Made by a program: the position numbers and the translations under genes | Shown: positions 46,648 through 58,996 of the stretch, one piece after another | How the letters are laid out: every line of letters starts with the position of its first letter | Position numbering within the stretch: the stretch's first letter is position 1 | Notes under the pieces: model-generated | What the model was told of the DNA's origin: nothing | Database searches by the model: none | What the model saw: the letters and a program-made list of their open reading frames with translations, nothing else | From: Procambarus clarkii | Taxonomy: Eukaryota; Arthropoda; Malacostraca; Decapoda; Cambaridae | Direction: 5' to 3' | Length of the DNA: 64,000 nt | Assembly (NCBI RefSeq): GCF_040958095.1 | Contig: NC_091185.1 | Coordinates: 14,277,166-14,341,165 of the forward strand

Positions 46648-46658
46648 AGTAGTGTAAA

Positions 46659-46744
46659 GTGTGACTAGAACCGCGCGCACCAGCTGCCAGCTGGCCCTCC
46701 ATGGAGAGCCAGCCGACAGGTGGTGCGCAGGTGTCTAGTCACAC
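46659..46744. other. Terminal hairpin, left end
   Basis: GTGTGACTAGA at 46659-46669 pairs with TCTAGTCACAC at 46734-46744. Further pairing occurs inside (GCGCACCA with TGGTGCGC, CAGCTGGCCCTCC with GGAGAGCCAGCCG). This gives an 86-bp imperfect hairpin with CATGG at its apex, eleven bases from the element tip. Confidence 0.85.
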
Positions 46745-46905
46745 AGGGTTTTGGGGGAATTTCCCGGAAGTTTGGCGCGTTTCGGACGCGTGTGAGCGTC
46801 CTGTGTTTGGGTATGTGGTCAGGAACGAGGGGGAGTTATGTTGTTGAGTGCCAGGTGGCGCGCGGGTGTCTAGTCACATAGGGTTTTTGGGGAATTTCCC
46901 GGATG
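46732..46905. repeat. Subterminal direct repeat in the tip
   Basis: GTGTCTAGTCACACAGGG, then AATTTCCCGGA, at about 46732-46770 recurs at about 46867-46905 with few changes. Subterminal repeats often bind the recombinase of DNA transposons. The same pair is mirrored near 58740-58910. Confidence 0.75.
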
Positions 46906-47627
46906 TTATGACGCGTGGCATCCGGCCAGACGTCACTTGAGAGAGTGTCATGTTGGGGTTGGTAAGCAGTCATGTAGGGAGGAGGTGGAAGAGGAGGAGT
47001 GTAGGTTATGTTGTGAAGGGAGGGGGGAGCCCCAATACCTGAGAGGATATCAATGACGTCCATTAGTTCTACCCCTACATGGGCAGGAAGTAATGAGGGG
47101 AGCGTGAGAGACCAGTGTCTTAAGAATGGAGGGGGAGGAGTGGAAAGGGAGGTAACAGCTGGCAGTGGGTTTGTGTGTGTGTGAAAGTAGTCATTATTTT
47201 TTTCTTAAAGAATGACAGTTTTATGTAGCCTCTCTGCTTCCAGAGCGCTAAGGATATGTTGGCTATACCTACCACGTAGCTATGACGAGTGACACCACAT
47301 GTCCACACGGGTTTCCTCTTCAAAGGCGGAGGTCTAACTGTTGCGAATGTCATCATCAACCTCTAACATAGTCAGTCAGTCATCCCCCCCCTCCCCCCCC
47401 CCCTCCATCCACATAGGAGGACATACCCACATACCACCACCACACTGCTGGGAGTGACAGCAATATGGCATACCATACTCTCTCATGACACAGCTCTTAC
47501 CGGCACATAGCATTGAGTGTGGCAATGTTCTTTCTCAAAGGTGAGCCATGAGCGCAACATACAAATTCCAAAATGCAGTCCTGGGAGTTTGACACACGTT
47601 GATTAACAAGCTATCTGATTATTTATA

Positions 47628-47762
47628 CAGCTTCTCTCTCTCTACATTATATGCGGGTTACATAGTGTGTCAAGAACTCTCTCTCTCTATGTCTCTCTCT
47701 CTCTCTCTCTCTCTCTCTCTCTCTCTCTCTCTCTCTCTCTCTCTCTCTCTCTCTCTCTCTCA
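47628..47762. repeat. (CT)n tract, left arm, outer
   Basis: Mostly CT dinucleotides with TATGTCTC interruptions. The matching right-arm region (57302-57957) is two GA tracts with about 250 bp of unique sequence between them, so this side has lost the intervening piece. Confidence 0.93.
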
Positions 47763-48304
47763 CTCGCTCTCTCTCACCCTCTCTGAAGTCCACCACACGA
47801 CCCTTCACTTAGTAAACTCAGTCAAAGTCAGTAGGTTAGCGTTTACTAAAAGAGAGAAACATTTCACATCGTCACGGAGACGCGATCTCTACCTACAAAT
47901 TGTTCTTGTTAACTGTGATCACAACATCTGCTGGCCAAATAAATATCATTGAAATGTATGCATGTTTACTCAATCTCCATCACCTCTTCGTCCTACATCC
48001 ATAGCAAGACTCCTGAATGAATGAACCGGCAGCCCCTCTCGCTGCAGTCTCACCTTCGTGATGGTTTGAGGTGTATTGAGATGGAGGATGTAATGGCTCG
48101 GCCTTACCCTCTCCCCGTCCACCCCCACTTACCCTTACCCCTACCACCCCCCTCCATGGCCAAACCATCACTGCCCCCATTCCCAGACCGGATGTTCTGT
48201 TCTAAGCTTTAGTAACACCATTCTTTGCTCAAATAGTATTTTTTTAAGAATATCCAGTCATAAGCTGGTCTTCAATCTTATTATTATAACAAATCATAAT
48301 TTGC

Positions 48305-48535
48305 TGTTCTCTCTCTCTGTCTCTCTGTCTCCCTGTCTCTCTCTCTCTCTCTCTCTCTCTCTCTCTGTCTCTCTGTCTCTCTGTCTCTCTGTCTCTCTGT
48401 CTCTCGCTCTGTCTCCCTGTCTCTCTCTCTCTCTCTCTCTCTCTCTCTCTCTCTCTCTCTCTCTCTCTCTCTCTCTCTCTCTCTCTCCATGTCTCTCTCT
48501 CCATGTCTCTCTCTCTATCTCTCTCTCCTTCGTAT
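48305..48535. repeat. (CT)n/(CTGT)n tract, left arm, inner
   Basis: CT tracts punctuated by GTCTCTGTCTC and CCCTGTCTC. The right-arm partner at 56380-56776 is almost twice as long through duplication of the ACAGGGAGACAGAGCG module. Confidence 0.93.
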
Positions 48536-48589
48536 TGTTCATTCATTCATAGTTCCTTTCATTAAAACTATTTCAGTTTTACTTATATA

Positions 48590-55900: not shown

Positions 55901-56379
55901 TTAGTTGGAAAATAAAGAACTTGTACAAAAAAATGAACTAAGCTGAGGGGGCAAGAGTTGAAACTTGATAACTGAACCGGTTTTTATTTACTATGACTGA
56001 AAATGTAGTTGGTGTTCAAATCTCAGGAGAATTGGACTGATAGTAATAAATTTATAGGAGTGGACTTGGACAGAGGACAGGAGCTAGAGTTTTATAATTG
56101 TTTACATCATATTTACTATGAAATACAGAGGGTAGAAATTACAGTGAAATTGTTGGGTTATTTACAAATATACGAGAGAGCTAGAGCTCAGTAACTGACT
56201 TGATATTATTTACTAACTTTGAAGTATGACTGCTTTAAATTTCGGAAAATTGATCTATTACTAACGATCTTGTACAAATGAACTAAGCCGGGGACAAGAG
56301 CTGGAGATGGCTTTGTTTATATAAGTAAAACTGAAATAGTTTTAATGAAAGGAACTATGAATGAATGAACAATACGAAG

Positions 56380-56776
56380 GAGAGAGAGATAGAGAGAGAG
56401 ACATGGAGAGAGAGAGAGAGAGAGAGAGAGAGAGAGAGAGAGAGAGAGAGAGAGAGAGAGAGAGAGAGAGAGAGAGAGAGAGAGAGAGAGAGAGAGACAG
56501 GGAGACAGAGCGAGAGACAGAGAGACAGAGAGACAGAGAGAGAGAGAGAGAGAGAGAGAGAGAGAGAGAGAGAGAGAGAGAGAGAGAGAGAGAGAGAGAG
56601 AGAGAGAGAGAGAGAGAGACAGGGAGACAGAGCGAGAGACAGAGAGACAGAGAGACAGAGAGACAGAGAGAGAGAGAGAGAGAGAGAGAGAGAGAGAGAG
56701 AGAGAGAGAGAGAGAGAGAGAGAGAGAGAGAGAGAGAGAGAGAGAGACAGGGAGACAGAGAGACAGAGAGAGAGAA
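56380..56776. repeat. (GA)n tract with ACAGGGAGACAGAGCG modules, right arm
   Basis: A 400-bp purine strand. The module with ACAGGGAGACAGAGCGAGAG occurs twice (about 56497 and 56619), where the left arm has it once. All frames are open, giving phantom Arg-Glu repeats. Confidence 0.95.
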
Positions 56777-57301
56777 CAGCAAATTATGATTTGTTATAAT
56801 AATAAGATTGAAGACCAGCTTATGACTGGATATTCTTAAAAAAATACTATTTGAGCAAAGAATGGTGTTACTAAAGCTTAGAACAGAACATCCGGTCTGG
56901 GAATGGGGGCAGTGATGGTTTGGCCATGGAGGGGGGTGGTAGGGGTAAGGGTAAGTGGGGGTGGACGGGGAGAGGGTAAGGCCGAGCCATTACATCCTCC
57001 ATCTCAATACACCTCAAACCATCACGAAGGTGAGACTGCAGCGAGAGGGGCTGCCGGTTCATTCATTCAGGAGTCTTGCTATGGATGTAGGACGAAGAGG
57101 TGATGGAGATTGAGTAAACATGCATACATTTCAATGATATTTATTTGGCCAGCAGATGTTGTGATCACAGTTAACAAGAACAATTTGTAGGTAGAGATCG
57201 CGTCTCCGTGACGATGTGAAATGTTTCTCTCTTTTAGTAAACGCTAACCTACTGACTTTGACTGAGTTTACTAAGTGAAGGGTCGTGTGGTGGACTTTAG
57301 A

Positions 57302-57957
57302 GAGGGCGAGAGAGAGCGAGTGAGAGAGAGAGAGAGAGAGAGAGAGAGAGAGAGAGAGAGAGAGAGAGAGAGAGAGAGAGAGAGAGAGAGAGAGAGAGAG
57401 AGAGAGAGAGAGAGAGAGACAGAGAGAGAGAGACAGAGAGAGAGAGAGAGATAGAGACAGAGACAGAGAGAGACAGCGAGAGACAGAGAGAGACAGAGAC
57501 AGAGACAGAGTGAGAAAGAGAGAGAGAGAGAGAGAGAGAGAGAGAGAGAGAGAGAGAGAGAGACAGAGATAGAGACAGACAGAGAGACAGATCGTTACTC
57601 TTAAAATGTTATTTGGGCAAAGAACGAACGAAGTTGGTATATTGTCCACGTTATATTAATGATATTGGGTAAAGAATGAGGTTAGCATATTGGTCGTGTT
57701 ACCTTACAAGGTTATAAGGGTGAGAGTGAAGGGGGGCTCGAAAATTGACATAGTGGTCATCCTAAGTGAAATGGAGAAAGATACGTGAACAGCGGCAGCA
57801 GGAGAAAGGAAAATGATGTTACTTTCCCCAACTATTAAATGATCTGGAGAGAGAGAGAGAGAGAGAGAGAGAGAGAGAGAGAGAGAGAGAGAGAGAGAGA
57901 GAGAGAGAGAGAGAGAGAGAGAGAGAGAGAGAGAGAGAGACAGAGAGAGAGAGTTCT
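57302..57957. repeat. Two (GA)n tracts around unique DNA, right arm
   Basis: GA-rich 57302-57592 and 57844-57957 flank unique sequence 57593-57843, which contains ATTTGGGCAAAGAACGAACG. This resembles the ATTTGAGCAAAGAATGGTG stretch near 56850, so the piece itself may be a local duplicate. Confidence 0.9.
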
Positions 57958-58899
57958 TGACACACTATGTAACCCGCATATAATGTAGAGAGAGAGAAGC
58001 TGTATAAATAATCAGATAGCTTGTTAATCAACGTGTGTCAAACTCCCAGGACTGCATTTTGGAATTTGTATGTTGCGCTCATGGCTCACCTTTGAGAAAG
58101 AACATTGCCACACTCAATGCTATGTGCCGGTAAGAGCTGTGTCATGAGAGAGTATGGTATGCCATATTGCTGTCACTCCCAGCAGTGTGGTGGTGGTATG
58201 TGGGTATGTCCTCCTATGTGGATGGAGGGGGGGGGAGGGGGGGGGATGACTGACTGACTATGTTAGAGGTTGATGATGACATTCGCAACAGTTAGACCTC
58301 CGCCTTTGAAGAGGAAACCCGTGTGGACATGTGGTGTCACTCGTCATAGCTACGTGGTAGGTATAGCCAACATATCCTTAGCGCTCTGGAAGCAGAGAGG
58401 CTACATAAAACTGTCATTCTTTAAGAAAAAAATAATGACTACTTTCACACACACACAAACCCACTGCCAGCTGTTACCTCCCTTTCCACTCCTCCCCCTC
58501 CATTCTTAAGACACTGGTCTCTCACGCTCCCCTCATCACTTCCTGCCCATGTAGGGGTAGAACTAATGGACGTCATTGATATCCTCTCAGGTATTGGGGC
58601 TCCCCCCTCCCTTCACAACATAACCTACACTCCTCCTCTTCCACCTCCTCCCTACATGACTGCTTACCAACCACTTAGCTTCCAACCCCAACATGACACT
58701 CTCTCAAGTGACGTCTGGCCGGATGCCACGCGTCATAACATCCGGGAAATTCCCCAAAAACCCTATGTGACTAGACACCCGCGCGCCACCTGGCACTCAA
58801 CAACATAACTCCCCCTCGTTCCTGACCACATACCCAAACACAGGACGCTCACACGCGTCCGAAACGCGCCAAACTTCCGGGAAATTCCCCCAAAACCCT

Positions 58900-58985
58900 G
58901 TGTGACTAGACACCTGCGCACCACCTGTCGGCTGGCTCTCCATGGAGGGCCAGCTGGCAGCTGGTGCGCGCGGTTCTAGTCACAC
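58900..58985. other. Terminal hairpin, right end
   Basis: GTGTGACTAGA at 58900-58910 pairs with TCTAGTCACAC at 58975-58985, the mirror of the left hairpin, with the same 86-bp length and the same eleven-base distance to the tip. Confidence 0.85.
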
Positions 58986-58996
58986 TTTACACTACT

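What the first reader, a model, noticed from the sequence alone, without database searches (positions are those of the whole stretch)
46648..58996. 12.35-kb near-perfect palindrome inserted with a 6-bp target duplication
The two arms (5.67 and 6.39 kb) are complementary end to end. The unit begins AGTAGTGTAAAG, ends in its complement, and is bracketed by exact CCAGTA repeats in an otherwise continuous LINE-A 3' end. It therefore moved as a unit. A 6-bp duplication with 5'-AG tips is the Polinton/Maverick signature, yet ordinary Polintons have TIRs of hundreds of bp around a coding core. Here the whole element is TIR, and no polymerase, integrase or capsid gene is visible. A snap-back product of protein-primed linear replication, later integrated in trans, would give this shape. 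That mechanism is inference. It may be an undescribed class of foldback element.
Basis: partly seen in the sequence, partly recalled or inferred. Interest (0 to 1): 0.88.

Follow-up and report, generated by a model that had tools for sequence, protein, structure and literature searches.

The report
Giant palindromic Polinton hitchhiker family
A 12-kb stretch of DNA that is its own mirror image turns out to be one of many copies of a gene-free jumping element that carries the same ends as a virus-like transposon (Polinton) in the same animal genome, and whose two halves look as if they are remade from one template around each move.

Summary
The palindrome is real and inserted as one unit: arms 46648-52316 and 52609-58996, 292-bp spacer, 16 substitutions in 5,217 compared sites, exact CCAGTA duplication, and an uninterrupted paralogous LINE site in the same window. 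The own genome (4.03 Gb, probably a decapod) holds 210 exact copies of a 23-nt tip pattern against 0 for its control. I examined 22 tip pairs, this one included: 15 are palindromic (8 followed to the centre, 7 only at 2.5-3.7 kb depth), 3 have long TIRs around a single-copy core, 4 are coding Polintons. The best-studied coding copy (C7) has the same tips, a 6-bp duplication, a protein-primed polymerase and an integrase. Duplications are exact in 15 of 22. The tips fit the published Maverick motif (AGT)2//(ACT)2. So this is a non-autonomous Polinton family in which a full-body palindrome is the usual, inherited form. In subfamily I, 56 of 63 arm differences are private to one arm: the arms are homogenised at or after each move. 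A one-off snap-back of an autonomous Polinton is not supported. A hairpin replication cycle is the favoured, unproven mechanism; arm-to-arm gene conversion is the main rival.

The parts
46642..46647 (+). left 6-bp target site duplication CCAGTA
   Evidence: sequence; single copy in the paralogous empty site at 28776-29154
46648..52316 (+). left arm of the palindrome
   Evidence: self-comparison; arm alignment
46648..46653 (+). 5' tip AGTAGT, the (AGT)2 end motif
   Evidence: sequence; motif published for vertebrate Mavericks (PMC8097293, passages seen)
46659..46744 (.). 86-bp imperfect terminal hairpin, 11 nt from the tip
   Evidence: DNA fold of 46648-46760 -35.1 kcal/mol, z -6.5; inverted arms 81% complementary
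46852..46907 (+). second copy (91%) of the subterminal 56-bp unit at 46717-46772, containing TCTAGTCACA
   Evidence: a protein-binding role is inference
52317..52608 (.). central spacer, itself partly self-complementary
   Evidence: z -7.9 for 52300-52625, which includes about 17 bp of each arm
52609..58996 (-). right arm of the palindrome
57407..57846 (.). block present only in the right arm (about 255 bp between GA arrays)
58900..58985 (.). mirror copy of the terminal hairpin
   Evidence: motif positions
58991..58996 (-). 3' tip ACTACT
   Evidence: sequence
58997..59002 (+). right 6-bp target site duplication CCAGTA
   Evidence: sequence
46336..46647 (+). left flank: LINE 3' end interrupted by the insertion
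   Evidence: aligned with 28776-29154
59003..59096 (+). right flank: continuation of the same LINE 3' end
   Evidence: aligned with the paralogs ending at 29154 and 62746

Best explanation
It is one copy of a many-copy family of non-coding (non-autonomous) Polinton elements, 11-15 kb in the 15 palindromic ones examined, whose body is a palindrome. They share tips, outer TIR sequence and the 6-bp duplication with coding Polintons in the same genome, and are most likely inserted in trans by that Polinton's integrase. SHOWN: unit insertion; 6-bp duplications; shared tips; a coding partner with protein-primed polymerase and integrase; palindromic form at many loci and across subfamilies; arm differences that are mostly private to one arm. 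INFERRED: the linear DNA is replicated from a terminal protein at the AGTAGT tip (the repeated triplet allows adenovirus-like jumping back); the displaced strand folds on itself into a full-length hairpin; copying that hairpin, or mismatch repair inside it, makes both arms from one; the integrase then inserts the double-stranded product. The palindrome is thus both the consequence of the replication mode and kept by it. The confidence given is for the whole statement with the hairpin step; for the family assignment alone (non-autonomous, palindromic Polinton) I hold about 0.9.
For: Exact tip pattern 210 times against 0 in the control. Of the 100 places listed there, 26 neighbouring pairs are convergent within 40 kb and 6 neighbours within 40 kb have another orientation. 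An inner block of the arm gives 13 convergent pairs, no other neighbours under 20 kb, and 14 unpaired places among the 40 scored matches. Palindromy in 15 of 22 pairs: 8 followed to the centre, 7 at 2.5-3.7 kb depth. TSDs exact in 15 of 22 (12 of 18 non-coding, 3 of 4 coding), five of six bases in 4, not matching in 3. Coding element C7:50046564-50060096: same tips, TSD CATGGG, 661-bp TIR at 96.5%, PF03175 match (E 1.3e-7, profile 14-254 of 468) in a 1,387-aa open frame, and an ORF with rve (E 8e-9) plus Chromo (E 8e-5, under its cut-off). C2, C21 and C32b match its interior at 95-99%. C7 TIR is 90% identical to this element over 232 bp and 93-94% to C76 over about 700 bp. Outer-kilobase arms: W 0.20% between arms against 1.85% to the nearest other copy, C61 0.19 against 2.06, C28 0.48 against 2.05, C77 0.20 against 0.41, C50b 0.20 and C76 0.10 against 1.52. 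56 of 63 arm differences in subfamily I are private to one arm, and 48 of 52 sites with a variant in two or more arms agree between arms in every element. Jumping-back on a terminal triplet repeat in adenovirus: PMC4974454, passages seen.
Against: No replication intermediate was observed; the hairpin cycle rests on analogy and on arm homogeneity, which gene conversion after insertion would also give. In the outer kilobase C36b (1.16% between arms against 0.82% to its nearest other copy) and C40 (0.48 against 0.41) do not show the effect, and in inner blocks of subfamily I the arms beat the nearest other copy in only 2 of 4 (2815-4400) and 2 of 6 elements (1900-2480, one tie), where the copies are very similar. 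In this copy arm differences are uneven (2 in the outer half, 14 in the inner half, p 0.005), which fits some conversion or mixed ages. Seven of 63 differences are shared across elements. Three members (C29, C50a, C41) are not full palindromes, so full palindromy is not required for spread; C27 is palindromic at depth but its two ends align over only 34 bp at the tip. The source of the arm interior is unknown: it does not match the pieces of C7. Five palindromic copies lack an exact duplication (C36b, C61, C32a, C36c, C36d), which I have not explained.
Confidence: 0.55

Rival explanations
1. A non-autonomous Polinton with very long TIRs whose arms are kept alike after insertion by gene conversion between the inverted arms, as in chromosomal palindromes. 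No hairpin replication is needed; the Polinton origin is the same.
For: Arms form sister pairs in the outer-kilobase tree for 5 of 6 subfamily I elements, which conversion predicts too. Differences in this copy are unevenly spread. TIRs that vary in length and recruit inner sequence are described for Galileo, with recombination and conversion proposed (PMC3573991, passages seen).
Against: A LINE insertion in the left arm of C77 and the extra 440-bp block in the right arm here have not been converted away. Most differences are private single-arm changes, as expected if arms were identical at insertion and then drifted.
Confidence: 0.35
2. A one-off snap-back product of protein-primed replication of an autonomous Polinton, integrated in trans.
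For: Polinton tips, 6-bp duplication and a protein-primed polymerase in the genome; a hairpin linear plasmid is cited (Kikuchi 1985) in PMC4443254 (passages and reference line seen; the paper itself is not held).
Against: No match of the arms beyond 1 kb to the C7 pieces held; the same palindromic design at many loci and in subfamilies about 5-13% apart in shared blocks. A single founding snap-back followed by spread remains possible and fits the best explanation.
Confidence: 0.05
3. A Foldback, Galileo or Mutator-like long-TIR transposon.
For: Long, repeat-rich TIRs and non-coding copies.
Against: Duplication is 6 bp here; Galileo makes 7 bp and its longest reported TIR is about 1.26 kb (PMC3573991, passages). 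Tips and TIR are those of an element with pPolB and an integrase.
Confidence: 0.02
4. Assembly artefact (fold-back read joined into the contig).
For: Near-identical arms are typical of missed-adapter reads (general knowledge); no reads were available.
Against: Target duplications and an empty paralogous site, arm-specific indels and blocks, and palindromes with different duplications at many loci.
Confidence: 0.02

Closest known systems
Polinton/Maverick elements (vertebrate Mavericks, PMC8097293)
   Same: (AGT)2//(ACT)2 tips and 6-bp duplication; the partner element in this genome has 661-bp TIRs, pPolB and an integrase with a weak chromodomain match
   Different: Intact vertebrate Mavericks have TIRs of 46-1,447 bp around seven or eight genes (passages); here no genes were found and the arms run to the centre
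Galileo and other foldback elements of Drosophila (PMC3573991)
   Same: non-autonomous copies with long, internally repetitive inverted repeats; TIR growth by recombination proposed
   Different: 7-bp duplication, P-superfamily transposase, TIRs up to about 1.26 kb (passages); no link to protein-primed replication
MITEs and other non-autonomous DNA transposons (recalled)
   Same: non-coding, share TIRs with a coding element, mobilised in trans (inferred here)
   Different: 11-15 kb rather than hundreds of bp, and palindromic over the body
Hairpin linear plasmid (Kikuchi 1985, cited in PMC4443254; its content recalled, not read)
   Same: linear replicon in hairpin form
   Different: an extrachromosomal plasmid, not an integrated many-copy transposon family

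Membership tests
Polinton/Maverick (as a non-autonomous member) | 6-bp target site duplication | tested here: met
   this copy CCAGTA; exact in 15 of 22 elements, 5 of 6 bases in 4, not matching in 3
Polinton/Maverick (as a non-autonomous member) | (AGT)2//(ACT)2 or (AG)3//(CT)3 end motif | tested here: met
   AGTAGT...ACTACT in this copy and in 20 of 22 elements; C28 and C61 have AGTAGG; motif. Elements were picked by tip similarity, so this count is not independent
Polinton/Maverick (as a non-autonomous member) | TIR shared with an element that encodes protein-primed DNA polymerase B and integrase | tested here: met
   C7 element: PF03175 between the tips, rve ORF with weak Chromo, TIR 90% over 232 bp to this element
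Polinton/Maverick (autonomous) | own pPolB, integrase, ATPase and capsid genes | tested here: not met
   no such family in 33 filtered ORFs of the left arm and spacer or in the arm ORFs
Polinton/Maverick (as a non-autonomous member) | integration by the Polinton integrase and replication from a terminal protein | not testable with these tools
   needs biochemistry or cell assays
Foldback / Galileo | 7-bp duplication (Galileo) and P-type transposase partner | tested here: not met
   6-bp duplication and a Polinton partner; Galileo value
IS3EU / GingerRoot (other 6-bp duplication families) | TA..TA (or TG..CA) termini | tested here: not met
   tips are AG..CT; definition from PMC10045372 passages

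The most novel reading that the evidence does not exclude
These elements are obligate hairpin replicons: each new copy is made through a single strand folded over its whole length, so that one arm is the template for both and the palindrome is renewed at every transposition. That would be a hairpin-replicating parasite of a protein-primed virus-like transposon, and arm comparison would give each insertion a built-in clock.
Probability: 0.4. Interest if true: 0.85.

Novelty: new variant of a known kind. Interest (0 to 1): 0.72.

Why it matters
Polintons are thought to copy themselves by protein-primed synthesis, but to my knowledge (recalled) their replication intermediates in animals have not been seen. 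A many-copy family of gene-free, full-length palindromes carrying their ends gives a natural record of that replication: arm-to-arm identity against copy-to-copy divergence tests whether a folded single strand is an intermediate. It would also add a size and shape class of non-autonomous transposon, and because the arms were probably identical at insertion, each copy could date itself. Long palindromes of this kind are hard for assemblers and annotators (general knowledge), so such families may be overlooked in large crustacean genomes.

Tried and rejected
Rejected: an autonomous Polinton here (no genes found); foldback/Galileo and IS3EU-type families (duplication length and tips); assembly artefact (duplications, arm-specific changes, many loci). 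A conserved-looking ORF of 110 aa (50214-50543) is open in subfamily I where found except C61, which has an indel, but only partly present in the other subfamilies; a 122-aa ORF (46839-47204, minus) is broken in C61 and C28. I treat both as non-coding.

Led nowhere: exact tip patterns in the viral contig collection (none; 3 stretches with a 16-nt pattern, whose surroundings as printed are unlike this element); the phage collection with the outer 1,013 bp; a walk out from a second polymerase family to find its ends (the stretches were fetched but not analysed). The one-end origin test on C7 was inconclusive: arms of C29, C50a and C41_R align 958 bp into the left end and 714-810 bp into the right end, but at lower identity on the left. 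Literature, listings only unless said: 13 papers; 18; 20 of 60 listed; 2; 5; 4; 25 of 47 listed; 3; no listed title or abstract opening describes a palindromic Polinton. One search (six phrases for non-autonomous or palindromic Polinton/Maverick) returned 0 papers. The library lacks most subscription papers, including the original Polinton paper, so absence from print is not shown.

Limits on counts: genome searches score only the best candidates (40 of 2,393, 2,210 and 1,540; 91 of 1,428), and one search lists 100 of 210 places. The first ten pairs are all the inverted pairs I could see besides the window's own; 18 unpaired tips there were not followed as such. The second ten were picked by hand. 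The 22 are therefore not a random sample, and 15:3:4 is not a genome-wide ratio. 'Followed to the centre' means pairing resumes to within 0.7 kb of the axis or the centre is itself palindromic; strictly chained blocks, which drop overlapping pieces, cover 64-99% of those eight, while the same measure gives 64%, 48% and 24% for C29, C50a and C41, which differ by an unpaired core of 2.6-3.7 kb. C36b has an unpaired stretch of 1.5 kb on one side of its palindromic centre. C27 shares the tandem units of C29 and may belong with it. Dropped rows: C40_R and C36b_R in block 2815-4400 (and so); C36b_R, C41_R, C50a_R and C29_R in the inner block and C77_R in the tip block.
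Full report
What is there. Window 46648-58996 is a 12,349-bp palindrome with arms 46648-52316 and 52609-58996 and a 292-bp spacer. Outside microsatellites the arms differ at 16 of 5,217 positions; indels are few except in CT/GA and TA arrays, and the right arm has an extra block at 57407-57846. CCAGTA flanks both ends. With the element left out, the flanks align without a break to two other LINE 3' ends in the window, 28776-29154 and 62635-62746; the first carries CCAGTA once. 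The unit therefore inserted whole, with a 6-bp duplication. The tips read AGTAGT...ACTACT, and 11 nt inside each lies an 86-bp imperfect hairpin.

No genes found. The 33 ORFs of 45 aa or more from the left arm and spacer that passed a complexity filter gave no PHROG match and one chance-level Pfam match; one further arm ORF gave matches far under the Pfam cut-offs. No Rfam family reaches its gathering score in 44000-64000. The outer 2 kb of the left arm is about 43-52% G+C, the inner arm about 30-37%.

Host. A LINE protein of the window has 67% identity over 72% of its length to a protein of the crayfish Cherax quadricarinatus, the highest identity among named hits in the 120 listed; hits named for birds, a turtle and a cyanobacterial MAG also appear, some with higher scores (taxonomy). 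The assembly is 4.03 Gb.

The family. The tip 301 bp has 57 reported matches in the own genome, with 40 of 2,393 candidates scored; they include 11 inverted pairs 9-15 kb apart, the window's own among them, and 18 unpaired tips. The pattern AGTAGTGTAAAGTNNGACTAGAA occurs 210 times exactly, its reversed control 0 times. In the 100 places listed, 26 neighbouring pairs converge within 40 kb (9.0 to 33 kb long) and 6 neighbours within 40 kb have another orientation. I fetched ten pairs nearly whole and sampled ten more at edges and at 2.5-3.7 kb depth. With the window copy and C7 that makes 22 elements. Eight are palindromes followed to the centre (W, C40, C36b, C61, C28, C77, C50b, C76; caveats on coverage in Tried and rejected). 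Seven are palindromic at the sampled depth (C27, C32a, C36c, C36d, C37, C46, C65; inverted identity 92.6-100%); C27 is odd, its two ends aligning over only 34 bp at the tip. Three have long or repeated TIR sequence around an unpaired core of 2.6-3.7 kb (C29, C50a, and C41, which holds 2.5 kb of N). Four are coding (C7, C2, C21, C32b). An inner arm block, searched alone, returns 13 convergent pairs, no other neighbours under 20 kb and 14 unpaired places among its 40 scored matches.

Duplications. Exact 6-bp duplications flank 15 of 22 (12 of 18 non-coding, 3 of 4 coding); four have five of six bases matching (C36b, C29, C36c, C36d); three do not match (C61, C2, C32a).

The coding partner. The protein-primed polymerase family PF03175 has 95 reported matches in this genome, many in long open frames. 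One, a partial match at E 1.3e-7 in a 1,387-aa open frame, lies between inverted tips at C7:50046564 and C7:50060096; it is the only one within 25 kb of a tip among the 100 places listed. That element is 13,533 bp, has TSD CATGGG and a 661-bp TIR (96.5%) that is 90% identical to this element's tip over 232 bp and 93-94% identical to C76 over about 700 bp. One of its ORFs has an integrase core (rve, E 8e-9) with a weak chromodomain match; the other nine ORFs sampled from it had no Pfam match at E 0.01 (five, four). Internal pieces of C2, C21 and C32b match it at 95-99%. These are Polintons by the features I could test; capsid and ATPase genes were not identified. The tips also fit the end motif (AGT)2//(ACT)2 and the 6-bp duplication reported for intact vertebrate Mavericks, whose TIRs are 46-1,447 bp (PMC8097293, passages seen).

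Arms stay alike. Members of different subfamilies share parts of the arm (window arm positions 1-272, about 1030-1879, 2491-3719) at roughly 87-95%. In the outer kilobase the arms within a copy are closer than to any other copy compared in W (0.20% against 1.85%), C61 (0.19 against 2.06), C28 (0.48 against 2.05), C77 (0.20 against 0.41), C50b (0.20 against 1.52) and C76 (0.10 against 1.52), but not in C40 (0.48 against 0.41) or C36b (1.16 against 0.82). In inner blocks of subfamily I, where copies are very similar, this holds in only 2 of 4 and 2 of 6 elements; in subfamily II it holds in 2 of 2 for the 2.4-kb inner block (0.08 against 0.54). Of 63 arm differences in three blocks of subfamily I, 56 are private to one arm and 7 are shared with other elements. 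Of 52 sites where a variant is carried by at least two arms, 48 agree between the arms of every element. So the two arms do not evolve as separate lineages: they were nearly identical when each copy was made, or have been converted since. A LINE in one arm of C77 and the one-sided block here argue that conversion after insertion is not complete. The uneven spread of differences in the window copy (2 outer, 14 inner, p 0.005) argues that it may not be absent.

Mechanism. The repeated triplet at the tip is the arrangement that lets adenovirus start at an inner triplet and jump back (PMC4974454, passages seen). In protein-primed strand displacement a palindrome's displaced strand would fold into a full-length hairpin. 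Copying it, or repairing mismatches in it, makes both arms from one, and the Polinton integrase would then insert the product. The replication and integration steps are inference. The rival with most weight is arm-to-arm gene conversion in the chromosome. The family assignment itself is unaffected.

The arms beyond 1 kb have no match to the pieces of C7 that I held, about 10 of 13.5 kb (11 of 22 arms were tested this way), and the palindromic form is family-wide in the sample. A founding snap-back is possible; a fresh one at this locus is not supported.

Verdict. A new variant of a known kind: non-autonomous Polintons with a full-body palindrome. In the paper listings searched I saw no description of such a family; the library does not hold the original Polinton paper.

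Noticed in passing
window 1-24083: A tandem array of a 33-bp unit (about 734 copies, 91% matches) fills the first 24 kb.
   Followed up: no
window 30105-33582 (-): LINE-type ORFs with endonuclease, reverse transcriptase and RNase H; a 670-aa ORF at 33854-35863 (-) beside them has no Pfam match at E 0.01.
   Followed up: no
window 38917-39660 (+): ORF with a CCHC zinc knuckle, probably a gag-like retroelement piece.
   Followed up: no
window 44384-45781: A smaller nest of inverted and direct repeats around AT arrays, including a 0.6-kb inverted repeat near 45001-45612.
   Followed up: no
L033 and L036-L045 (among them C24 and C44): A second protein-primed polymerase family, several copies with 1253-aa frames; the best-matching pairs listed are 98.0-99.8% identical, and 4 kb downstream is 100% identical between two loci, which suggests very recent Polinton activity in this genome.
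   Followed up: partly
G000:C8:1111767 and 1111851; C32:5151939: Tip repeated 84 bp apart at one element end, and an extra ACACTACT beyond the tip at another; possibly errors of a jumping-back start at the terminal repeat.
   Followed up: no
G000:C44 3.43-3.86 Mb: A cluster of at least six closely similar tip copies in 0.43 Mb.
   Followed up: no
L020 (C77) 2539-4386 (+): A reverse-transcriptase ORF (LINE insertion) inside only the left arm of a palindromic copy.
   Followed up: partly
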